Below, piece after piece: positions 1,329-38,719 of a stretch of 42,158 nt of DNA; the stretch's first letter is position 1; every line of letters begins with the position of its first letter. Where the stretch lies: the IMG/VR virus record IMGVR_UViG_3300025646_000096, positions 1 to 42,158 of that record. One strand, 5' to 3'. Position numbers and translations under genes: made by a program. The notes below the pieces were generated by a model. The model was not told where the DNA came from and did not search any database. It worked only from the letters and a program-made list of their open reading frames with translations. Source of the DNA: a virus.

Positions 1329-1399
1329 CGCCAATTTTAATAAGGATGAATATGTGCGACCAAGGAATGTGACCCTGGCCGCACACATGCAAGATTGAA

Positions 1400-5010: not shown

Positions 5011-5933
5011 TATATCACATTCCCTCCAATTACAGTGGCCTTTGTTGGATCCCTGGATTCTGTTGCACGCATACTGTGTCTGGTAATATCCTTCCAGGTT
5101 GTGAATATGTGCCGCCTATCTCTTTGGTATTCTGACATGATATTCCTGTAGCCAACTTCATCCTTGTCAATTTCCCTCGAAAGATGAGCTTTTATGTACA
5201 AAGAGCAAGCCCGGGCTTCCCTGATTGTGAAAATTGTTTCATCTCCGTCATGAAGATCCGTTTCCCAGTATTGCGTCTTTTGGTAGGTCTGGATCCCCGT
5301 TCCTTCGATAATCAGCTTCTCATCAACACAAAGCTTTGGATAAAGAATGAAGCCATCATCACCAAACGCTATGGAGTTATGACACCTCCCGTATGATGAC
5401 TCATTTAATATGTGGCGTTCATTCCAAGGGATCCTATCCACCTCACGGTACTGGCTCACTTTAAGATCATTGTTATCAAAAGGGAATCTACGAATAAGAA
5501 TCCTGCTTATCTCGTGGTTGGGAATGGTAACTCGTCCAGTATGTGCACCATCATGTGTTTCAGCGAGGACATTTATCCTGAACCAGTTATCCGGATCATC
5601 CCCGGGAAGACTGCCGCCCTCATCCACATCATGGTAAGACTGAAACACAGGTGTCCCAAATTTTTCCGCAGATCTCATTAAGACACCTCCAGTCTCCACA
5701 ACTACAATGGATCCTTTTGCCCATGCTTCATGCGTTGTCCAAATTGAAGGCTCAACGCTACTCCATGTCACTATCTCAATATCTCGCAAGGCTGACACAA
5801 AGTCCTGTAAATCGACAATAGCTGCTCGTGCCAATTGATTGATGTAGGTTTGAATCCGCTTACCCTTACGAACCGCATCATGCAGGAGCAAATCCCGCAT
5901 ATCTTCTTTGAAATTTCCCCAAGTATATTCCAT
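5010..5933 (-). CDS. Head-tail adaptor-like protein
   Basis: This 307-residue protein opens with MEYTWGNFKEDMRDLLLHD and INQLARAAIVDLQDF, the helical start typical of podoviral adaptor proteins (gp11-type or SU10-type). The C-terminal third carries FILYPKLCVDEKLIIEGTG, then EARACSLYIKAHLSREIDKD and YQRDRRHIFTTWKD, the usual final helices that pack against the portal. Length and position downstream of portal, scaffold and capsid genes agree. It would form the ring joining portal to tail. A middle insertion (about 60-140) makes it somewhat longer than the shortest members. The family assignment is from pattern memory, not a search. Confidence 0.6.
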   Translation of the reverse strand: MEYTWGNFKEDMRDLLLHDAVRKGKRIQTYINQLARAAIVDLQDFVSALRDIEIVTWSSVEPSIWTTHEAWAKGSIVVVETGGVLMRSAEKFGTPVFQSYHDVDEGGSLPGDDPDNWFRINVLAETHDGAHTGRVTIPNHEISRILIRRFPFDNNDLKVSQYREVDRIPWNERHILNESSYGRCHNSIAFGDDGFILYPKLCVDEKLIIEGTGIQTYQKTQYWETDLHDGDETIFTIREARACSLYIKAHLSREIDKDEVGYRNIMSEYQRDRRHIFTTWKDITRHSMRATESRDPTKATVIGGNVI

Positions 5934-8841: not shown

Positions 8842-8925
8842 AGTATTTTAACATTTCAGCCTCAAATTACCACATATCGAAAAAAAACAACGAATATTCG
8901 CATTTTCGTCATACTTTTTACAAAA
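8842..8925 (-). promoter_or_regulatory. Probable capsid-gene promoter/leader with GTATGAC box
   Basis: The segment upstream of the capsid start is AT-rich, with GTATGAC on the minus strand at 8908-8914 and a CCACATAT copy at 8870-8877. TTGTAA about 18 bases ahead of GAATAT is a possible weak -35/-10 pair. The GTATGAC box recurs at four other promoter regions in the window. No sequence resembling a ribosome-binding site precedes the ATG. Confidence 0.4.
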
Positions 8926-8980
8926 ACTGAAAATCAGGACTCAGGACTTAAAACTGAAAACCTCCCACATATGCACCCAC

Positions 8981-15492: not shown

Positions 15493-15937
15493 CTTTCATT
15501 TCCTTTCTCCACTCAGCGATGATTTTTATCAACTCAACGAATGTGCTTTTGTAGTGTGGTGACTTGTGTAGATAGGTAAATTTTGGATTCTTCCGCTTGT
15601 ATGATGCAGCACGATTCCTGTGTGCGGTCTTCATGGGATCAAAGTCGCAACCCTTGCAGAACCTCTGAGCATCACCAATAGTGACAGTATCCCAACTCTT
15701 GAGTCTTGATATCTGCTTTACTTGCGTTACTGCCAATCCTGACCTTAATGCAATCTCTTCGTCAGACAGTGCTCTTATGATGCTGCCTGACACAATCTCC
15801 CTTGCAAGGCATCTAACCATGACAGGAGGAAGTCCCGATAGATATTTCCATTTCACTCCTCTTTTACTAAAACCACACACCACATATGCAAGAAAGAAAT
15901 TCAATAAAAGCCTTGCATGTAATTCTATTTTTGTCAT
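15443..15937 (-). CDS. Helix-turn-helix DNA-binding protein at the head of the late block
   Basis: From the ATG at 15937 the product has 164 residues. Residues about 60-100 form a helix-turn-helix (LSDEEIALRSGLAVTQVKQI SRLKSWDTVTIGDAQRF). The C-terminal part is basic and ends in a charged helix. It overlaps the small terminase gene by 50 bp and lies only 12 bp from the divergent ERF gene, so their promoters must overlap coding sequence. It may regulate late genes or help recognise the packaging site. An upstream in-frame ATG at 15967 would overlap the ERF gene and is less likely. Confidence 0.6.
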   Translation of the reverse strand: MTKIELHARLLLNFFLAYVVCGFSKRGVKWKYLSGLPPVMVRCLAREIVSGSIIRALSDEEIALRSGLAVTQVKQISRLKSWDTVTIGDAQRFCKGCDFDPMKTAHRNRAASYKRKNPKFTYLHKSPHYKSTFVELIKIIAEWRKEMKVERSKTDDIRDQRIAS

Positions 15938-18665: not shown

Positions 18666-19556
18666 ATGTGTCTAATAAAACTACATCAGGCTTGGAACTG
18701 TCAGACCCTGACAGGCACTACCAAGCTCGTCTTAATGTCCCTGGCCGACGATGCCAGCAAAGAAGGCTTAGCGACCTCCTCGCTATCCTCAATAATGAAG
18801 CAATCAAATTGCAGTGACTCAACCGCTCGCAGAGCAATAAAGGAACTGGAGGAAAAGGGATTTGTCCAGATACTCAGATCCGGAGGAGGTAGAAACGTCA
18901 CTGAATATTTCGTGAATCCCATCGCTGATTCCGGCCTCGAAAAATCAATTCTTGAGGGGTGTCAAAATGATAGGGGTGTCAAAATGACAGGGGGTGTCAA
19001 AATGACAGGGGTATCCCCTACTGATAATCAGGGCTCAGAGCCTGAGGGGTGTCAAAATGACAGGGGTGAATTACCTATGGTGTCCTCCCCCCTCTCAGAC
19101 TCTCCCCCCACCCACGTTGGGGGAGTGCGTATGGGTACGCATGAGGAGGGCGATTCCGGTAGCGACAGGAAGGGCAGGAAGGCACCAAAGGGAAAGCATC
19201 CTTTACCGGACGACTGGTATCCAAACGAGCACAGCATTAACGTATGCCGGAATATCATGAGGCTAAACCTTCAGATAGCAATGGAGCTTTTTATGAACTG
19301 GGCAAAAGGCAAGGGCAAGTTGTACGTTGACTGGGATATGACATTTCAGAACGCTTGCCGGAAGTGGATCCCAGAAACTCCCAGTGCATTACTGGTGAAC
19401 ACGCCAGAAGACGTGGCCCAGCAAAAAACAATGGATTTTACCATCGACAGCGACAAGGAGTTTGTCGAGTGGATGAAGGAGCGGGGTTACTGGCAAGAAG
19501 GAAGATCTCCTGAAGCCTTAGCGGATTATCGTGAAATGTTTGAAATGGGAGTTTAA
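18666..19556 (+). CDS. Winged-helix replication initiator protein (lambda O / HTH_36-like)
   Basis: This 296-residue protein has an N-terminal winged helix (LTGTTKLVLMSLADDASKEG, LATSSLSSIMKQSNCSDSTA, RRAIKELEEKGFVQI) typical of phage and plasmid initiators. It then has a repetitive linker (GCQNDRGVKMTGGVKMTG) encoded by iterons and a C-terminal domain (LPDDWYPNEHSINVCRNIMR; FQNACRKWI) like those that contact DnaB. The DnaB gene follows three bases after the stop. It should bind the iterons inside its own gene, melt the origin and load helicase. The start is supported by the complete winged helix; the upstream ribosome-binding site is weak. Confidence 0.8.
   Translation: MCLIKLHQAWNCQTLTGTTKLVLMSLADDASKEGLATSSLSSIMKQSNCSDSTARRAIKELEEKGFVQILRSGGGRNVTEYFVNPIADSGLEKSILEGCQNDRGVKMTGGVKMTGVSPTDNQGSEPEGCQNDRGELPMVSSPLSDSPPTHVGGVRMGTHEEGDSGSDRKGRKAPKGKHPLPDDWYPNEHSINVCRNIMRLNLQIAMELFMNWAKGKGKLYVDWDMTFQNACRKWIPETPSALLVNTPEDVAQQKTMDFTIDSDKEFVEWMKERGYWQEGRSPEALADYREMFEMGV
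18954..19069 (+). repeat. Replication-origin iterons: four TGTCAAAATGACA palindromes
   Basis: Four copies of a 13-bp palindrome TGTCA-AAA-TGACA, each flanked by G runs, lie at 18960-18972 (one mismatch, GATA), 18977-18989, 18995-19007 and 19050-19062. The first three are spaced 17-18 bp; the fourth is 55 bp on. Copies 1 and 4 share longer flanks (GAGGGGTGTCAAAATGA). They lie within the initiator gene, as lambda iterons lie in gene O. A 7-bp GC-rich inverted repeat follows at 19102-19108/19119-19125. Origin function is inferred. Confidence 0.82.
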
Positions 19557-31262: not shown

Positions 31263-31658
31263 TTATTTCGCCTCCTCTTTCGCCTTATCAGCTTCCTCTT
31301 GCAATATTTTTGCACGATGTTTCATAGCAAGCTTTCTCGTGGAAAAGTACGGAACACTTCCATCCTGAATGAAATGAGGACACGACAAATTAAAAGCCAA
31401 CCAACCATCTACTCCAACCCACAAAACAATACTGCTCTCAACATACTTACGCCCTGGTTCCCAGTAATGAACCTCCATGCGAGGAACAACCTTCACCCCA
31501 TCAGATGTCATAAGTGAATTTTTTGGCTCCCTGTCCATAAGCTGCCTCGCTGATTCCTCCCATGCACCCTTTGCCAAATCATAAGCCTCTGCCGGAGGCT
31601 TCTGGAAGCAAACACTCCTGAGCCATGTCTCAAATGGTTTATTGGTTTCTTCGCTCAT
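31263..31658 (-). CDS. Protein of unknown function
   Basis: The 131-residue protein has a beta core (VKVVPRMEVHYWEPGRKYVE SSIVLWVG) and a charged helical tail (RAKILQEEADKAKEEAK). Its stop touches the first base of tRNA-Phe. It overlaps the 59-residue gene upstream by 20 bp. No family recognised. Confidence 0.58.
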   Translation of the reverse strand: MSEETNKPFETWLRSVCFQKPPAEAYDLAKGAWEESARQLMDREPKNSLMTSDGVKVVPRMEVHYWEPGRKYVESSIVLWVGVDGWLAFNLSCPHFIQDGSVPYFSTRKLAMKHRAKILQEEADKAKEEAK

Positions 31659-31818
31659 TCTTCTCTCCTTTCAAGTGCTTGCTTATGAGCTTGTTAGACT
31701 GGACAATCCCTCGCAGCTCTATGGTTATTTCCTTAACACGCTTCACGTTCTGCTTGTCCAAGGATTGCATAAAGCCCAGGAAGTCCCGCCTCTCCATTAC
31801 TTCTCGGATGTTACTCAT
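31639..31818 (-). CDS. 59-residue basic helical protein, first gene of the minus operon
   Basis: MSNIREVMERRDFLGFMQSL followed by DKQNVKRVKEITIELRGIVQ and a basic tail. It begins just downstream of the GTATGAC-rich promoter region and overlaps the next gene by 20 bp. Likely nucleic-acid or protein binding by charge; unproven. Confidence 0.55.
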   Translation of the reverse strand: MSNIREVMERRDFLGFMQSLDKQNVKRVKEITIELRGIVQSNKLISKHLKGEKNERRNQ

Positions 31819-32215
31819 TTTGAATTCGGGGTTATAGTTAGGATCCCCATAATTAACGTCATACGTTTTTTGTCAACCCCTATTTTTTGTCATACGTTAA
31901 TTTTTTTATTTTGTCATACGTTTTTTATTTTTTTGGGAGCCTCATATTTCGACGAGAATCGATTTTTGAGGTTTTTTGGTACATAGGTATGGGTTTTGGG
32001 GTGAAAGGCCTTTCCTGATAGCTTCTCGGTGCCCTAATTTTTCCAGATTCTTGGAAATGTGAGAAAGGGGGGATATAAAAGACAAAACACAAAAAGTTCA
32101 AACCCCCCATAGCCCCGGTCACATATCGGTGCATATGTGGTATGGGCGTAAATAGAGGATATGATGGTTGTCCATCCAAGAAAAATCGCCTCTTTAGGCA
32201 AACCCATAAAACATC
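31819..32215. promoter_or_regulatory. 397-bp divergent regulatory region with three GTATGAC boxes
   Basis: No supported gene. It separates the minus operon (first gene at 31818) from the plus right arm (first gene at 32216). Three GTCATACGTT boxes (GTATGAC on minus) lie at 31858-31864, 31889-31895 and 31913-31919 in T-rich DNA. A minus-strand TTGACA (31876-31871) with weak -10 (ATTATG) faces the minus operon. Further right are a GAAAGGCCTTTC palindrome, an AT box GGATATAAAAG and ATATGTGG at 32133-32140. It is the clearest control hub of the window. Confidence 0.65.
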
Positions 32216-32776
32216 ATGTCAACATTGACAATCAAAAAAACTGAGCCTAAACTCATTAAGTCCAGCAGCAAGCTGGCAACTTCTATCTCCAATTGGAGAA
32301 AACAAAAAACCAAGGCATTAGAAAATGCATTGAAAAATGCAAAAAAATCTATGCACAAAACCATCATTGAAATGATCAGTTTTAATGATGATGGTGATTG
32401 CATTGTTTTCAAAACAATTGGGGAAAAAGATACTCCATCCAAGCCAAACGACAAGATTTTGGTTCAACGTACGGGTAAACGTACAATTGGAAATGAAGAA
32501 TATACTGTAACATTGCCAGTCAATATCGAAGTAGAGAGATGTTCATCCAGCGAAATTGAAAGTTGGCTTAGAAAGCAAGCCAAAGATTTGAACTGCTTGG
32601 TATCTTTGGAGATTCTTCAAATCCTCGAAGATAAAGTTCATCTTATGAAGGCTGACGCATCTGACATGTCGGCAATACTGACTGGTAATGGTATTAAGGA
32701 AGTGAAGTTCTTTCAACGCAACGGCATCTTGAATATTGCTGGAAGGAAGGCTGAAAAGAAGGCATTGAAAGCGTAA
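32216..32776 (+). CDS. Basic protein of unknown function, first gene of the right arm
   Basis: This 186-residue protein has a basic helical N-terminus (ISNWRKQKTKALENALKNAK), a beta-rich middle (TGKRTIGNEEYTVTLPVNIE) and a helical C-terminus ending KAEKKALKA. A strong terminator follows, so the gene is its own unit. Position beside the control region suggests an early regulator or host-takeover protein; no family recognised. Confidence 0.6.
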   Translation: MSTLTIKKTEPKLIKSSSKLATSISNWRKQKTKALENALKNAKKSMHKTIIEMISFNDDGDCIVFKTIGEKDTPSKPNDKILVQRTGKRTIGNEEYTVTLPVNIEVERCSSSEIESWLRKQAKDLNCLVSLEILQILEDKVHLMKADASDMSAILTGNGIKEVKFFQRNGILNIAGRKAEKKALKA

Positions 32777-32783
32777 ACCATCC

Positions 32784-32829
32784 GAGAAGGGGAGCCAGTA
32801 GAGATGCTGGTTCCCCTTTCTCTTTTTTT
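32784..32829 (+). terminator. Strong intrinsic terminator
   Basis: GAGAAGGGGAGCCAG pairs with CTGGTTCCCC...TTCTC (one bulged T) around an 8-base loop and is followed by seven T. It ends the transcript of the 186-residue gene. Confidence 0.9.
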
Positions 32830-32890
32830 CGGCATTCATCATTCATCAACAGTCCTTGCATGGATCCAATGGTAGTAGATGCAGTTTCAT

Positions 32891-32926
32891 GCATGGCTTC
32901 CAATATGTGGATCCTTGGATATGTGG
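32891..32926 (+). repeat. Leader element copy 0 (GCATGGCT...ATATGTGG) with a second ATATGTGG
   Basis: GCATGGCTTCCAATATGTGG at 32891-32910, followed by another ATATGTGG at 32919-32926. It precedes the 61-residue gene and resembles the elements before three later genes. Confidence 0.7.
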
Positions 32927-32949
32927 TGGATGCCCAACCTTTTAATCTT

Positions 32950-33135
32950 ATGAAATCTAAGTCAAACACATGGAGGCCTCTCCCCTTCCAAAAGCGAATC
33001 CTTATGCGTATCGCTGAAGGGATCAAAGAGGCTCCAAGGAAAATCAAAAAAATTCGGAGCAAGCTCCTCCATGGCAAAAAGCCGGATCTCATCATCGTGG
33101 ATGAGATGACGGAGGATGATATGCCTCCTTTCTAA
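32950..33135 (+). CDS. Small basic protein of unknown function
   Basis: The 61-residue product starts MKSKSNTWRPLPFQKRILMR; the longer frame upstream crosses the conserved leader element and is discarded. Basic helix (IKEAPRKIKKIRSKLLHGKK) then PDLIIVDEMTEDDMPPF. The terminal DDMPPF resembles SSB-type tips that bind partners. Function unknown. Confidence 0.55.
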   Translation: MKSKSNTWRPLPFQKRILMRIAEGIKEAPRKIKKIRSKLLHGKKPDLIIVDEMTEDDMPPF

Positions 33136-33167
33136 TGCGTTGAGTGGGTGGGATCTCACTTTTCAAT

Positions 33168-33191
33168 GCATGGCTGCATATGTGGTCATGC
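33168..33191 (+). repeat. Palindromic leader element copy 1
   Basis: GCATGGCTGCATATGTGG then TCATGC, two bases shorter in the middle than copies 2 and 3. Preceded by GGGTGGGAT and followed by AAAAGATAAACCAAAAA and the ATG at 33233. Confidence 0.75.
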
Positions 33192-33232
33192 TTCACTAAA
33201 AGATAAACCAAAAAACCAAACCAAAAACTAAA

Positions 33233-33793
33233 ATGCAAACTGCATCAAATAACTCCAACACCATCGCTAACGCCAACGACTCCAATGAGTCTGTTAAATT
33301 TTTCTTGTTCCAGGGTGGCACAATTTGCCATCCATCTATCTTGGCAATATCATTGCCTCACGAGTTTAAGACTGGCTCAGGGCACATTGTGTCAATCACT
33401 GGGGAAAATAATAAGTTCGTAACGGGTCTTGCCCTTGATCTCAAAAGGTTCTTGATGAGAACCATTAAAAAGAAGATGCGTAATGTGCTTGAGATAGGCA
33501 TCAAGTACATGGAGAAACATCCTGAAGACTATAGTCGGGTATTCTCGGCAACAAGCCCTACTTATGGTGACTCTAATCATGCTACCGAGCCTGGCATCTT
33601 GGAGCTTCTGGCAAGGGCTTACTATGAGCTGAAGTCAGGCATGATCACGCAGGTCATTACCTTATCTCAGGATGATGCTGACCATTTAACCATGATGTCT
33701 GACATCCAGCGGGCTGGACGGGAGAAGCACTGGACTGACCGTCCTCAGGGCGGATTGGCTCATCATCGCATTTTTCAATACGTATATCTTTAA
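33233..33793 (+). CDS. Protein of unknown function
   Basis: This 186-residue protein has an Asn/Ser-rich N-terminus, then FFLFQGGTICHPSILAISLP, a helical region (LKRFLMRTIKKKMRNVLEIG IKYMEKH) and a C-terminal part with LTMMSDIQRAGREKHW. No family recognised. It follows leader element 1 and is monocistronic with its neighbour's element after it. Confidence 0.6.
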   Translation: MQTASNNSNTIANANDSNESVKFFLFQGGTICHPSILAISLPHEFKTGSGHIVSITGENNKFVTGLALDLKRFLMRTIKKKMRNVLEIGIKYMEKHPEDYSRVFSATSPTYGDSNHATEPGILELLARAYYELKSGMITQVITLSQDDADHLTMMSDIQRAGREKHWTDRPQGGLAHHRIFQYVYL

Positions 33794-33829
33794 CATCGTT
33801 GGGTTGGGTTGGGATGCCCAATTTTTCAT

Positions 33830-33855
33830 GCATGGCTACACATATGTGGCTGTGC
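33830..33855 (+). repeat. Palindromic leader element copy 2
   Basis: GCATGGCTACACATATGTGG followed by CTGTGC; central CACATATGTG is a perfect 10-bp palindrome. Upstream GGGTTGGGAT, downstream AAAAGATAAACCAAAAACC before the ATG at 33891. Confidence 0.78.
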
Positions 33856-33890
33856 TTAACCAAAAGATAAACCAAAAACCCAATAAGAAA

Positions 33891-34253
33891 ATGCGTGAAG
33901 CACAATCAATACTAATCACTAATAGCTACACCCAGAGATGGGCAATCATGTTCCAGTCAAGCACTGGAAACATCTTGGGCCTGCCTGTCAGTCAGGTTCA
34001 GTACCAAGACAAGGATGACATCCTGCTTGGTAATGACTTCTCTTGCGAGGAGGTAAATTACTTAATCTTCGACATTGCAGAATCCCTCAATGCTGGTGCT
34101 GAGGGGCTGGATGAGGTCTTCGATAACATCATTGCGTTTCGTGAGATGTTCAGAGGCGGCGAGATGTTCTCCGGTGACAAGCAATACCGTAAGCTTCTCA
34201 CTAAGGTAACTATTTCATGGGAAGCTATGACTATGCTTCCTAAAGTATTCTAA
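33891..34253 (+). CDS. Protein of unknown function
   Basis: From ATG 33891 the product has 120 residues (MREAQSILITNSYTQRWAIM); earlier in-frame ATGs fall inside the leader element. Beta-rich N-half (NILGLPVSQVQYQDKDDILL) and helical C-half (LNAGAEGLDEVFDNIIAFRE). No motif recognised. Confidence 0.57.
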   Translation: MREAQSILITNSYTQRWAIMFQSSTGNILGLPVSQVQYQDKDDILLGNDFSCEEVNYLIFDIAESLNAGAEGLDEVFDNIIAFREMFRGGEMFSGDKQYRKLLTKVTISWEAMTMLPKVF

Positions 34254-34285
34254 TCTCGTGGGTGGGATGGAAACTATTTTTCAGT

Positions 34286-34311
34286 GCATGGCTACACATA
34301 TGTGGTCATGC
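34286..34311 (+). repeat. Palindromic leader element copy 3
   Basis: GCATGGCTACACATATGTGG then TCATGC: outer GCATG/CATGC arms flank the CACATATGTG palindrome. In the same 194-bp gap lie CCACATAT at 34345-34352 and 34379-34386 and ATATGTGG at 34427-34434, plus a 17-bp sequence TTCGGCATTCATCAT also found at about 32828. Confidence 0.8.
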
Positions 34312-34447
34312 ACTTTTGTCGTTGGTGAGTCAGTCGTTGGCTCGCCACATATAAACCCAAAACAACCCATAATAAAGTCCACATATGAAGACCTTCGGCA
34401 TTCATCATCACTCCGCCGATGGATTCATATGTGGCAATTAACTAAAG

Positions 34448-35413
34448 ATGAACACTAAGACCAAAAAGAACCACGCAAGGAAGGGCCATGCCCAGCCTCG
34501 CAAGAAAAGGGAGGCACCAAGTCCTCTGAGAATAGACCATGAGAATAAAGCTCAGCGAGTTACCAAGCTCGTTGGGTTAAGGGCAAAAGCCTATGCATCA
34601 TGGTGTGAGCACGTCGATGCCCACAACATGATCAACGACTGTCGGAAGGCAGTTATTGAGTACCCAGGAGTGGGTACAGACAAGGGGGGAAGACTCCTTG
34701 AAGCTCTTGCGGGAGCTGTAGAAGTAGGGCGTGCCCTACTGGGGGAGATTGCCCCCAAGGACGAAGTTCGATTGAGATTGCCGTCCAATATAAGGGCAGA
34801 GATAAATGCCCAGTATGCAGAGGCTGAACGCCTTGCGGAAAGGATCGCTGAGCGGAAGTCCAAGCATGCCGAGACCATCAAGAGTCTCGATGAGATTATC
34901 TTCATGGCTGGTGTCCAGCATGGAGGTGACTCTATGGAGGCTTTATTTGAGCCGCAGTCTGCAAAGATTGCCGCAATCTCTTCAAAGAAGCAGGTTGTAG
35001 CTACATACAAGAAGTCAATGAAGGCATTGGCTGCACAATTCCAAGGGGCATACAATAAGGCTGTGTCCATGTGGAAGGATGCAATTCGTGATCATCAGGT
35101 AGCCTGCAGGGCTGCATTGATTGAGGCTGCAAAAGAAATGATGCCTCTACTGTCAAAAGAGTCTGACCTTCTTGAGAAGGGGTTCAAATCCTTTGATGCT
35201 CAGGTGAGCAAGGCTAAAGCCGCAGCCGACATTGCTTACGAGACACTTCGTAAGCACAATATCCGCAAGGAGTCTGAAGAGGACTCACTTGCACATGAGT
35301 TACTTCGTGATGCTGCGGCGGCTGGTCGTAAGGATAAGCGAGTCATAAAGGCTGAGCAGTTTCTGCGTAAGTCTCAGGCTCGCAAGTCTCAGACTTGGAA
35401 GGCACGCCGATAG
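34448..35413 (+). CDS. Helical basic protein of unknown function
   Basis: This 321-residue protein has a very basic N-terminus (KNHARKGHAQPRKKREAP), long Ala/Glu/Lys/Arg helices (AEAERLAERIAERKSKHAET; QVSKAKAAADIAYETLRKHN) and a basic end (KSQARKSQTWKARR). It looks like an elongated DNA- or RNA-binding coiled-coil protein. It follows the largest leader gap and starts the long coupled gene chain. No family recognised. Confidence 0.6.
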   Translation: MNTKTKKNHARKGHAQPRKKREAPSPLRIDHENKAQRVTKLVGLRAKAYASWCEHVDAHNMINDCRKAVIEYPGVGTDKGGRLLEALAGAVEVGRALLGEIAPKDEVRLRLPSNIRAEINAQYAEAERLAERIAERKSKHAETIKSLDEIIFMAGVQHGGDSMEALFEPQSAKIAAISSKKQVVATYKKSMKALAAQFQGAYNKAVSMWKDAIRDHQVACRAALIEAAKEMMPLLSKESDLLEKGFKSFDAQVSKAKAAADIAYETLRKHNIRKESEEDSLAHELLRDAAAAGRKDKRVIKAEQFLRKSQARKSQTWKARR

Positions 35414-35946
35414 TGTCTGAAGAACCAGGAAAGAGAGAGCTTCGTCTCTCACAAATCAAGTTGGTCTCCGCCATATGTGAAGCCATTGATGAGGAGAATG
35501 GTGGAGGCGTTGAGTTCTTCTCAAGGCAGTTCAATGAGATCATTGAGTTGTGCAATGAGATGTTCCCTCGCATAAACAACATCATCAATTCGCCATTCAT
35601 CAGTGCTACGAAGGATTCAGGGCTGGCGATATGGAAGGCGTGTGATGAAGTCGGACTGTCCTCTATGTGGCTTGCTTACTGGATATGTGGATGCAATTCA
35701 AACTGGTTTGGCGGCTCTGCTCCGGAAATCAATTACCCTCGGGATGCTGGTGACTTTGGGCGATGCCTGAAGATGCTGGAGGCTGTCAAACCCGATGCTG
35801 TCCGTAGTATCTACTCTATGGTAGGTGAAGCTGGAGATGCCTGGGATGCCTTACTGGATGGCTGGATACAACTCACTGAGCTGTATGAGTCTGGTGATAA
35901 GGCTGCGTGCACGGCTATGATTAAGGAGATCCTTAGCAATGCGTGA
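35413..35946 (+). CDS. Protein of unknown function
   Basis: The GTG start at 35413 overlaps the TAG of the previous gene (TAGTG) and gives 177 residues; an in-frame TTG upstream is less likely. It is helical with a Cys/Trp-rich centre (WKACDEVGLSSMWLAYWICG CNSNWFG). It overlaps the first of the three paralogues by 8 bp. No motif. Confidence 0.57.
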   Translation: MSEEPGKRELRLSQIKLVSAICEAIDEENGGGVEFFSRQFNEIIELCNEMFPRINNIINSPFISATKDSGLAIWKACDEVGLSSMWLAYWICGCNSNWFGGSAPEINYPRDAGDFGRCLKMLEAVKPDAVRSIYSMVGEAGDAWDALLDGWIQLTELYESGDKAACTAMIKEILSNA

Positions 35947-36475
35947 AGGGAACCTAAACCACGTCATCAACCCAATCATGCTGATTGAGGTTTGTATCCG
36001 TGACACACGGAGCATGCTCAATGATGATAGGTACATCTTGGATTGCTCCAAGTGGCATAAGGCGATAAAGCTTCATCGCAATCTATCGCCTGTAGCTGAG
36101 CTTGTCTGTGCATCATGCAATGCTGGTGCCATCATGGCGTTTGGGCTTGGTGTTCGCAACGATGAGGATGTGGAACCTTTAGAATTCGAACCCCAAACAG
36201 CATGGAAGTTGATAATGGTCAATCGCATACGCATGTGCGATATATTTGGCACAGGCGACTCTCTTGAGCTACTTGAGTGGACTGAGTACTTGGAGCCATT
36301 TCGCATCGCTTATTCCAGTGCTCAATCAGTAGCAATGGAGGTCGATGATGGCACCATCATAACGATCAGCGATAATATGAGGTATGGAGACCCTGATGCT
36401 TGGGAAGAATTCCTAAAGATCTTCATTGATGCCTGCACAGATGCTGGAGTCAGCACTAAGGGGCTGGATCAATGA
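35939..36475 (+). CDS. Tandem paralogue 1: CxxCNAGAIMAFGLG family
   Basis: The 178-residue protein carries NPIMLIEVCIRDT, SKWHKAI, CASCNAGAIMAFGLG, VNRIRM, WTEYLEPFRIAYS and a C-terminal helical segment ending TKGLDQ. The same order recurs in the next two genes. WH plus C-x2-C could form a metal site. Proteins with the C-x2-C-AG-x-MA motif occur in many phages but are uncharacterised. ATGA overlap with paralogue 2. Confidence 0.72.
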   Translation: MREGNLNHVINPIMLIEVCIRDTRSMLNDDRYILDCSKWHKAIKLHRNLSPVAELVCASCNAGAIMAFGLGVRNDEDVEPLEFEPQTAWKLIMVNRIRMCDIFGTGDSLELLEWTEYLEPFRIAYSSAQSVAMEVDDGTIITISDNMRYGDPDAWEEFLKIFIDACTDAGVSTKGLDQ

Positions 36476-36984
36476 GGGACACTCTCAAGGGGTTCATCAC
36501 CAACCCAATCATGCTCCTCGATGAGGTTATCAAAGATACTCAGTTGGTTAAGGGGAGTGAGTACCACGTTCTCGATGTGGACTTCTGGCACTCCTCTAAC
36601 CAAAGGAAAGGGAAGTGTGCCGTGTGTAACGCTGGTGCCATCATGGCATTTGGACTCGGTGCATCTTCTGATGATACTCTTGATCCTGACTGGTATGATG
36701 ATGCAACACAGAGTATGCTACTGGCTGTAGATCATATTCGTGCTGGACGTGAAAAATCGGTGGCATGTCACTTCCGGCGATTAGGGTGGGATGATTACAT
36801 CCGTCCTATGGAGCTTGCAATAGCCGCCTCCTGCATGGATCAGGCAGAAACTCCTTCAGGAAGTAATGTCTGCATGAGCATGGAGGTCGGCTCGGTTGAG
36901 GGCTGGATTGCATTCAGGGATATATTCCGCCAGTTTTGTATCCTTGATGGTCTCTGTGTTGATGGATTGAGTGCTGAATCATGA
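36472..36984 (+). CDS. Tandem paralogue 2: CxxCNAGAIMAFGLG family
   Basis: The 170-residue protein carries NPIMLLDEVIKDT, DFWHSSN, CAVCNAGAIMAFGLG, VDHIRAG, WDDYIRPMELAIA, MSMEVGSVEGWIAFRDIF and VDGLSAES. Motif order is as in paralogue 1, but the spacing of WH to CxxC is shorter. It starts in the TGA of paralogue 1. Confidence 0.72.
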   Translation: MRDTLKGFITNPIMLLDEVIKDTQLVKGSEYHVLDVDFWHSSNQRKGKCAVCNAGAIMAFGLGASSDDTLDPDWYDDATQSMLLAVDHIRAGREKSVACHFRRLGWDDYIRPMELAIAASCMDQAETPSGSNVCMSMEVGSVEGWIAFRDIFRQFCILDGLCVDGLSAES

Positions 36985-37520
36985 GCGTCAAGACTCTATC
37001 CTTCATCACTAATCCAATCATGCTGATGGAGCAGGCTATAAACGATATGCGGCTCGTCCAAGAAAGCGACGATCATAAGCTAAATATGGATGTCTGGCAT
37101 GAGATCACATGGAGTAAGGATGAGATAGAGAGCAATGAGCCTATCAAGTGCTCCGTATGTGCTGCTGGCTCCATCATGGCATTTGGCCTTGGTGCCAACC
37201 CAAGCGTGGATATGGATCCTTCAGAATTCGATCCAGACACAGCCCATAAGCTGTACTTGGTCAATTGGATTCGGGAGAATCGCATTAGTGCGATTGCTTG
37301 TTCCTTAGTCGAGCTTGATTGGCTTGCGTATATGCAACCATACGAGGATGCCTTCAAAGAAACTGCGAGCATGACAGTGGAGGCATCAGATGGTCTTCAC
37401 TACCATCTTCGAGGCGGGATGAAGTTTGGTGTCATCCAATGCTGGGAAGCCTTCACGGATTCATGGCGTGGTTTTGCTATGGCCAAGGGACTTGAGGTGT
37501 CAGGACTTCCGCAAGCATGA
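36981..37520 (+). CDS. Tandem paralogue 3: CxxCNAGAIMAFGLG family
   Basis: The 179-residue protein carries NPIMLMEQAINDM, DVWHEIT, CSVCAAGSIMAFGLG, VNWIREN, WLAYMQPYEDAF and VIQCWEAFTDSWRGFA. It has AAGS in place of NAGA. Coupled at both ends by ATGA. The three genes are clearly diverged copies, so duplication is old but retained. Confidence 0.72.
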   Translation: MSVKTLSFITNPIMLMEQAINDMRLVQESDDHKLNMDVWHEITWSKDEIESNEPIKCSVCAAGSIMAFGLGANPSVDMDPSEFDPDTAHKLYLVNWIRENRISAIACSLVELDWLAYMQPYEDAFKETASMTVEASDGLHYHLRGGMKFGVIQCWEAFTDSWRGFAMAKGLEVSGLPQA

Positions 37521-38719
37521 GCGTGAATCACATTAGAGTCAACCTCACCAGTGCAACTATTGATGCTTGCAAGGCTGGCTTAATTGAGAGGTATCGGGAA
37601 GCGGTAGAGGTCGCAAGGAGGCATGAATCAAATGTGATCTACTGCGGACCTGACCGAAACTCACAACTGTCAGAAGAAGGCTTGCAGAATGCTGTCGTTG
37701 CGATGGAAGAATCGCATAAGGCAATGCGTATCATTAGTATTCTTGACTGGCTTCAGGGCGAGGTTGAGCCTAATTATGGCAACTGGAAGGCTGATGAACT
37801 TCTGGCTGACATCAATCGAAGGCTTGATGAGATCAAGACCCCTGATGAGGTCATGCATGATGTAGCACTCGATGCCGTCATGTTATGGGAGTCTATCTTG
37901 GACGATGAGTTCTATGATTGGTTCCCGGGTGATGGTAACATCGCCAAGCAGGAGAATGCACTTAATTGCATCAATGCACTCCATCGCACATGGGAGAATG
38001 CTCGCATTCATCATGGATACGAGGAGCCTTTTGACTTTGAGTTCATCCCTGCGTTCCTTCGTTGGTGCAAAGTCCATGAGGTCAGTGTTGAGCACATGAG
38101 CGACATAGCTTCCCGCAAGGCTGCCGAGGAGATCTCTGTGGCTGCGGAGAAAACTCGTGAACTCAACCGATGCTGCCATATTACTGGGGAGCATGGAACA
38201 ATTACTGCCCGTATTGCAGATGGCAAGATCATCAATCTCGCCAAGAACCTTGAGTCCGAGGATCCAGAGGCTTATCACTCCTACAGATATGTTGGATTCA
38301 AGGAGTGGAAAGAGTTTTATGGAGTGGATGAGGTTCCCAGCAATCTGGATATACATGATGTCCTCATCACGGATGCCAATAATGTGCAGATTCCTCCAGC
38401 CAGACACGGTCAATCAAATGGATACCAAAAGGAAATGGAGTTCATATGTGCTTCAGACCTTATTCCTGATGATATTCGCAAAAGGTTCTGGGAGCTTTTC
38501 ATGGAGGAGCATAGTGGCAAGGTTGTGCCAACACCTGGAGACATACGAATAATGCAGCTCGTTACAGCAGGTGTATTTCTTGAGTTATACACCAAGGCTG
38601 TTGATGGTATGCCTCAAGCTGCCTACATTCGGCTTGGCTGCTGTCCTGATGCTGAGCAAGCATTCAGGGCAAAGCTCATTGATACACCTGATGACGCTCT
38701 CATCTTACTGGATTACTGA
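37517..38719 (+). CDS. Large protein with a LIP..KFWE-type module, unknown function
   Basis: This 400-residue protein starts with ATGA overlap. It has helical N-terminal regions, NRRLDEIKTPDEVMHDVALD, a Cys-containing centre (CCHITGEHGTITARI) and a C-terminal half with YQKEMEFICASDLIPDDIRK RFWELFMEE, a segment echoed in the proteins at 40618 and 41854. No enzyme motif recognised. Confidence 0.6.
   Translation: MSVNHIRVNLTSATIDACKAGLIERYREAVEVARRHESNVIYCGPDRNSQLSEEGLQNAVVAMEESHKAMRIISILDWLQGEVEPNYGNWKADELLADINRRLDEIKTPDEVMHDVALDAVMLWESILDDEFYDWFPGDGNIAKQENALNCINALHRTWENARIHHGYEEPFDFEFIPAFLRWCKVHEVSVEHMSDIASRKAAEEISVAAEKTRELNRCCHITGEHGTITARIADGKIINLAKNLESEDPEAYHSYRYVGFKEWKEFYGVDEVPSNLDIHDVLITDANNVQIPPARHGQSNGYQKEMEFICASDLIPDDIRKRFWELFMEEHSGKVVPTPGDIRIMQLVTAGVFLELYTKAVDGMPQAAYIRLGCCPDAEQAFRAKLIDTPDDALILLDY

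What the first reader, a model, noticed from the sequence alone, without database searches (positions are those of the whole stretch)
32880..34311. Repeated palindromic leader element before four right-arm genes
Elements at 32891, 33168, 33830 and 34286 share GCATGGCT...CATATGTGG...CATGC, a GGGTGGGAT-like box upstream and an AAAAGATAAACC-type leader downstream. GCATG/CATGC arms enclose CACATATGTG. Each precedes a separate unknown gene, so this looks like a shared control element (operator, RNA switch or processing hairpin) that coordinates a novel early gene set.
Basis: partly seen in the sequence, partly recalled or inferred. Interest (0 to 1): 0.74.

Follow-up and report, generated by a model that had tools for sequence, protein, structure and literature searches.

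The report
Repeated RNA hairpins before phage genes
Three neighbouring unknown genes of an uncultured phage are each preceded by the same pair of RNA hairpins, built around a short DNA word that this phage uses about ten times more often than chance, so the hairpins are probably shared switches or punctuation marks for those genes.

Summary
The repeat is real, but it has three full copies rather than four: 33136-33214, 33800-33878 and 34254-34322. The site at 32891 keeps only two short boxes (TGCATGGCT, ATATGTGG). Each full copy starts just after a stop codon: a weaker hairpin ending in a T-run (HP1), a 10-14 bp hairpin (HP2), then the next gene's leader. Folding is strand-specific: the three leaders hold five stems of 9 bp or more in the sense strand and none antisense (shuffle mean 0.27, maximum 3 of 1000), because most imperfect positions are G.U pairs. 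So it probably acts as RNA, though with three copies covariation is only suggestive.

ATATGTGG is also a phage-wide word: 22 copies in the window (1.9 expected), 12 of them in seven of 25 intergenic regions, and it exceeds codon-shuffled genes too. Nineteen relatives lack both the element and the right-arm genes, so conservation could not be tested. At least sixteen use another start-adjacent repeat, GTWAC-N12-GTWAC.

Best reading: an intercistronic leader module (partial terminator plus a regulator-readable 5' hairpin), resembling the ESAS elements of cluster K mycobacteriophages in layout but not in sequence. No promoter was found.

The parts
33136..33214 (+). Full copy E2 (HP1 + HP2 + start of leader), between the stop codon at 33135 and the gene starting at 33233
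   Evidence: covariance model 91 bits; alignment
33142..33161 (+). E2 HP1: 7-bp hairpin, loop TGGGAT, followed by T-run
   Evidence: sense -7.5 vs antisense -2.0 kcal/mol
33168..33191 (+). E2 HP2: 10-bp hairpin, loop AUAU
   Evidence: sense -14.1 vs antisense -4.8 kcal/mol
33800..33878 (+). Full copy E3, between the stop at 33793 and the gene starting at 33891
   Evidence: covariance model 95 bits
33801..33824 (+). E3 HP1: 9-bp hairpin with U-rich 3' arm, loop TGGGAT
   Evidence: sense -10.0 vs antisense -5.3 kcal/mol
33830..33855 (+). E3 HP2: 11-bp hairpin, loop CAUA
   Evidence: sense -15.2 vs antisense -6.3 kcal/mol
34254..34322 (+). Full copy E4, after the stop at 34253; the next gene starts at 34448
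   Evidence: covariance model 68 bits
34283..34314 (+). E4 HP2: 14-bp hairpin, loop CAUA, followed by TTT
   Evidence: sense -20.8 vs antisense -12.4 kcal/mol; also listed as terminator-like
34323..34347 (+). HP3: further sense hairpin in the E4 leader
   Evidence: 11-bp stem; sense -14.9 vs antisense -7.0 kcal/mol
34379..34434 (.). HP4: inverted pair CCACATATGAA / TTCATATGTGG, 14 nt before the start codon at 34448
   Evidence: about equally stable on both strands
32890..32926 (+). E1: partial copy, boxes TGCATGGCT and ATATGTGG plus a second ATATGTGG; no HP2
   Evidence: not found by the model
32119..32140 (+). E0: inverted pair CACATAT / ATATGTGG in the divergent region before the gene at 32216
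   Evidence: sequence
32786..32819 (+). Strong intrinsic terminator after the gene 32216-32776
   Evidence: 15-bp stem + CTCTTTTTTT
8870..8972 (-). Two ATATGTGG words in the leader of the probable major capsid gene (start 8841)
15880..15887 (-). ATATGTGG in the divergent region between structural and replication genes

Best explanation
The repeat is an intercistronic, start-associated control module that works in the sense RNA. HP1 (G-rich 5' arm, U-rich 3' arm, T-run) lies just after the upstream stop codon and acts as a weak terminator or end-stabiliser. HP2 (TGCATGGCT...ATATGTGG folded into a 10-14 bp hairpin) stands at the 5' side of the next gene's leader, followed in two copies by an unstructured A-rich stretch before the start codon. 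Because both the fold and the two boxes are kept, a phage-coded factor that recognises the ATATGTGG word probably binds there and sets how much of each gene is made. Shown here: the repeats, the strand-specific fold, the enrichment of the word. Inferred: terminator activity of HP1, the binding factor, shared control of the genes.
For: Five stems of 9 bp or more on the sense strand of the three leaders, none antisense, 0 of 1000 shuffles reach five. Consensus fold -18.4 kcal/mol sense against -6.0 antisense. Every scorable HP2 pair stays paired in all three copies, with four one-sided changes kept as standard or G.U pairs, and HP1 has two double changes; sliding the partner drops pairing from 94% to at most 43%. 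The 2-nt indel between E2 and E3 keeps HP2. Flanking proteins are unrelated, so the leaders were not simply copied with their genes. ATATGTGG is concentrated in seven of 25 intergenic regions.
Against: Only three copies in one virus; re-dealing partners among sequences is not significant (107 of 500). HP1 of E4 is weak (-2.5 kcal/mol). E1 keeps the boxes without the hairpin, and many ATATGTGG sites lie outside hairpins, which fits a DNA site better. No promoter was found between the strong terminator at 32819 and 34448. No relative carries the element.
Confidence: 0.42

Rival explanations
1. DNA-level operator or promoter element: a phage repressor or activator (or a modified RNA polymerase) binds ATATGTGG/CCACATAT, singly or as inverted pairs, in control regions and dispersed sites across the genome, in the manner of operators and stoperators. 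The hairpins are a by-product of paired sites.
For: ATATGTGG is the most over-represented 8-mer (22 vs 1.9 in the window; 8 vs 0.7 in the adjoining 12.7 kb). ATATGTG is enriched inside genes beyond codon shuffling in all frames (25 vs 4.6 and 12 vs 1.6). Sites stand in the capsid leader and two divergent regions. Inverted pairs at 32119 and 34379 (HP4) are equally stable on both strands. E1 keeps boxes and spacing without the stem. Relatives use a different DNA-like bipartite repeat at gene starts.
Against: Does not explain why most imperfect positions in HP2 and HP3 are sense-strand G.U pairs, or why no stem of 9 bp exists on the other strand. No sigma-70-like promoter in the leaders. No regulator identified.
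Confidence: 0.28
2. Generic RNA punctuation: processing or stabilising hairpins between cistrons of one transcript (as with RNase III sites between T7 early genes, own knowledge), with no dedicated regulator.
For: Strong sense hairpins exactly between consecutive same-direction genes; HP1 and HP2 straddle each junction.
Against: A generic hairpin needs no conserved sequence, yet TGCATGGCT and CATATGTGG are invariant in all three. Stems of 10-14 bp are short for RNase III.
Confidence: 0.17
3. A small repeated element without function for these genes (REP- or MITE-like insertion, or recent local copying of a leader).
For: No copies in relatives and none in other IMG/VR contigs beyond chance matches.
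Against: Copies sit only between stop and start codons of adjacent genes and in one orientation; substitutions keep pairing.
Confidence: 0.08
4. Leader-peptide attenuation: ATGGCT inside HP2 starts short peptides (MATHMW..., MAAYVV...) whose translation controls the next gene.
For: All copies contain ATGGCT followed by an open frame that ends before or across the next start (sequence).
Against: A 2-nt indel between E2 and E3 changes the frame but keeps the hairpin; the start codon is inside the stem.
Confidence: 0.05

Closest known systems
Start-associated and extended start-associated sequences (SAS/ESAS) of cluster K mycobacteriophages (PMC3203893, PMC11373665)
   Same: Short repeated elements with imperfect inverted repeats upstream of starts of mostly unknown, non-structural right-arm genes; consensus differs between subclusters; in Adephagia a putative terminator precedes one ESAS
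   Different: No 13-bp SAS, no recognisable SigA-like promoter inside, other sequence and host; here the repeat is a clear sense-strand RNA hairpin and the core word is also dispersed in genes
Stoperators of cluster A mycobacteriophages such as L5 (PMC9283540)
   Same: More than twenty copies of a short asymmetric word dispersed in promoters and short intergenic spaces
   Different: Many copies here lie inside genes and oppose transcription; repressor unknown; three sites are embedded in RNA hairpins
RNase III sites between T7 early genes (own knowledge)
   Same: Similar hairpins repeated between consecutive same-direction genes
   Different: Shorter stems here, paired HP1-HP2 layout, no evidence of cleavage
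GTWAC-N12-GTWAC start-adjacent repeats of the related phages (found here)
   Same: Repeated near gene starts in phages of the same terminase group
   Different: Absent from this virus and from G002 and G003; not hairpin-forming when in direct orientation

Membership tests
SAS/ESAS elements | 13-bp SAS GGGATAGGAGCCC just upstream of start codons | tested here: not met
   one match with two mismatches, inside a gene at 5428, as expected by chance
SAS/ESAS elements | Repeated inverted repeat upstream of several non-structural gene starts | tested here: met
   three full copies
SAS/ESAS elements | SigA-like -35/-10 promoter inside the element | tested here: not met
   consensus scan gives no site in the leaders; other promoter types not covered
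Stoperators | More than twenty copies of one short word across the genome | tested here: met
   22 in the window plus 8 in the adjoining 12.7 kb
Stoperators | Orientation correlates with direction of transcription | tested here: not met
   intergenic copies mostly sense (10 of 12), but copies inside genes are about equally sense and antisense
Stoperators | Bound by a phage repressor | not testable with these tools
   needs a binding assay; no repressor identified
Intrinsic terminators | GC-rich stem followed by a T-run | tested here: inconclusive
   HP1 has the form but only -2.5 to -10 kcal/mol; among the three copies only E4 HP2 passes the scan
Known RNA families (Rfam 15) | Match above a family's gathering score | tested here: not met
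   only two tRNAs in the window; only sub-threshold chance hits at 31800-34600
Hairpin promoters of N4-type or T7-type phage RNA polymerases | Phage-coded single-subunit RNA polymerase | tested here: inconclusive
   PF00940 found nothing in G000-G002, but the control rang nowhere; 5700-aa protein of G002 gave no polymerase match

The most novel reading that the evidence does not exclude
One phage-coded factor uses the same word, ATATGTGG, in two ways: as a dispersed DNA site throughout the genome and, folded into HP2, as an RNA operator between right-arm genes. This private regulatory code would have replaced the GTWAC-N12-GTWAC code used by the phage's relatives.
Probability: 0.1. Interest if true: 0.8.

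Novelty: new variant of a known kind. Interest (0 to 1): 0.5.

Why it matters
Repeated start-associated elements are known in a few phages, but their role is unsettled. Here is an independent case in an uncultured phage group, with a clear strand-specific RNA fold and a genome-wide word. Its relatives carry a different but equally repeated start-adjacent code, so turnover of regulator and site could be tested within one phage family.

Tried and rejected
BLASTN of 31500-38500 against GenBank phages: no match. Relatives of right-arm proteins in IMG/VR (gene after E2, three paralogous genes at 35939-37520, gene after E4, gene at 37517): none. Two pattern scans of IMG/VR for the element gave 21 contigs; the seven checked for reading frames lie inside genes of unrelated contigs, and the other fourteen show no element-like context. 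Hairpin promoters of an N4- or T7-type polymerase: none found, but the test is weak. Gene duplication as source of the similarity: flanking proteins unrelated. Leader peptides: frame not kept. Covariance model on 1.09 Mb including relatives: no credible hit outside the window. Coding enrichment of ATATGTG as a codon-pair effect: rejected, all frames are used. SAS motif: absent.

Full report
What the window is. It is a 42-kb IMG/VR phage contig. Another IMG/VR contig (G001) is the same virus (99.99% identical over window 1-23668); it extends 12.7 kb further left and lacks the right arm. Terminase relatives at 57-66% identity are numerous. One relative at 47% sits in an Opitutaceae MAG contig and three at 59% in an 'uncultured archaeon' MAG. 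The host is therefore unknown; Verrucomicrobiota is a weak guess.

Observation. Three sites are full copies: a covariance model built from them scores them at 68-95 bits and does not find 32891. The fourth keeps only the two boxes and their spacing. The GGGTGGGAT-like box is in the three full copies; the AAAAGATAAACC leader is in two.

Anatomy. After each upstream stop codon comes HP1. In E2 it is GAGTGGG-TGGGAT-CTCACTT, in E3 GGGTTGGGT-TGGGAT-GCCCAATTT, and in E4 a weak hairpin; all run into T. Then comes HP2: GCAUGGCUGC-AUAU-GUGGUCAUGC (E2), GCAUGGCUACA-CAUA-UGUGGCUGUGC (E3), AGUGCAUGGCUACA-CAUA-UGUGGUCAUGCACU (E4). The E4 leader adds HP3 and HP4.

RNA or DNA. The imperfect positions of HP2 and HP3 are G.U pairs in the sense strand and would be A.C clashes in the other. 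HP2 is 1.7 to 3 times more stable in sense. A scan not guided by the folds finds five stems of 9 bp or more in sense, none in antisense, and five were never reached in 1000 dinucleotide shuffles. Consensus folding gives -18.4 against -6.0 kcal/mol. All scorable HP2 cells stay paired and HP1 has two double changes. Sliding the partner by 1-3 columns drops pairing from 94% to at most 43%, but re-dealing partners among the three sequences is not significant (107 of 500). RNA-level folding thus rests on strand asymmetry; covariation is only suggestive.

The word ATATGTGG. It is the most over-represented 8-mer of the window (22 against 1.9 expected), and the adjoining 12.7 kb has 8 against 0.7. Twelve window copies lie in seven of 25 intergenic regions (0.14 expected): the probable capsid-gene leader, the divergent structural/replication region, the right-arm divergent region, and E1 to E4. 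Inside genes ATATGTG is the most enriched 7-mer beyond codon shuffling in both parts of the genome (25 vs 4.6; 12 vs 1.6) and uses all frames. The hairpins therefore contain a word that also stands alone as DNA, which keeps the DNA-operator rival strong.

Relatives. I read 19 related phage records. None encodes a detectable homologue of the right-arm genes or carries the element, so conservation is untestable rather than refuted. At least 16 of them have another repeat, GTWAC-N12-GTWAC. Spacer 12 is strongly preferred: 176 pattern counts (88 places, since the pattern is self-complementary) against at most 22 for any other spacer tested. Forty-nine matches, some in near-identical records, lie within 60 nt of a gene start, often with TTGAC upstream and the start codon 0-4 nt away. 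This virus, G002 and G003 have none. The group thus uses start-adjacent repeats that differ between clades, as reported for ESAS between cluster K subclusters (PMC3203893). Whether ATATGTGG is the functional replacement is inference.

Mechanism. Best supported is an intercistronic module: a terminator-like HP1, and a recognisable 5' hairpin HP2 before the leader. HP1 activity, the binding factor and coordination are inferred. The strong terminator at 32786-32819 implies that transcription starts, or reads through, between 32820 and 34448, yet no sigma-70-like site stands out in the leaders. This is the main gap.

Comparison. The layout is most like ESAS with an upstream terminator (PMC11373665 describes such a layout at Adephagia genes 90-91). 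It is not filed as ESAS, because the SAS 13-mer and an internal sigma-70 promoter were looked for and not found. It matches no Rfam family.

Noticed in passing
G005, G006, G009, G010, G012, G016, G017, G018, G020, G025, G026, G029, G030, G031, G036, G037 (L118-L166): Related phages carry a bipartite repeat GTWAC-N12-GTWAC directly upstream of many gene starts, often with TTGAC upstream and an AT-rich -10-like stretch between the halves and the start codon 0-4 nt later; looks like an operator straddling near-leaderless promoters.
   Followed up: partly
window whole; G001 left extension: ATATGTGG is enriched inside genes on both strands beyond codon shuffling, with more copies on the + strand (21 of 30) regardless of gene direction; reason unknown.
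   Followed up: partly
window 31851-31925: Three AACGTATGAC repeats around a TTGACA-N16-AATTAT promoter-like site facing left in the divergent region; the word GTATGAC recurs at 8914, 15939, 23512 and 28650, mostly intergenic. Likely operators of the leftward genes.
   Followed up: partly
window 18953-19068: Four tandem TTGACACCCC repeats inside the lambda O-like replication initiator gene; look like origin iterons.
   Followed up: no
L035 1379-18481 (G002): The relative has a 5700-aa open frame downstream of the tail genes; this virus has the start of a homologue at the left end of G001. No Pfam or PHROG match.
   Followed up: partly
window 1350-1388 (-): A 16-bp hairpin with ATATGTGC at its base overlaps the annotated start region of the gene 1062-1388, suggesting a later true start.
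   Followed up: no
window 35939-37520: Three tandem paralogous genes of unknown function (motif NPIML...C..C.AG.IMAFGLG, 34-39% identity), no relatives found in IMG/VR.
   Followed up: partly
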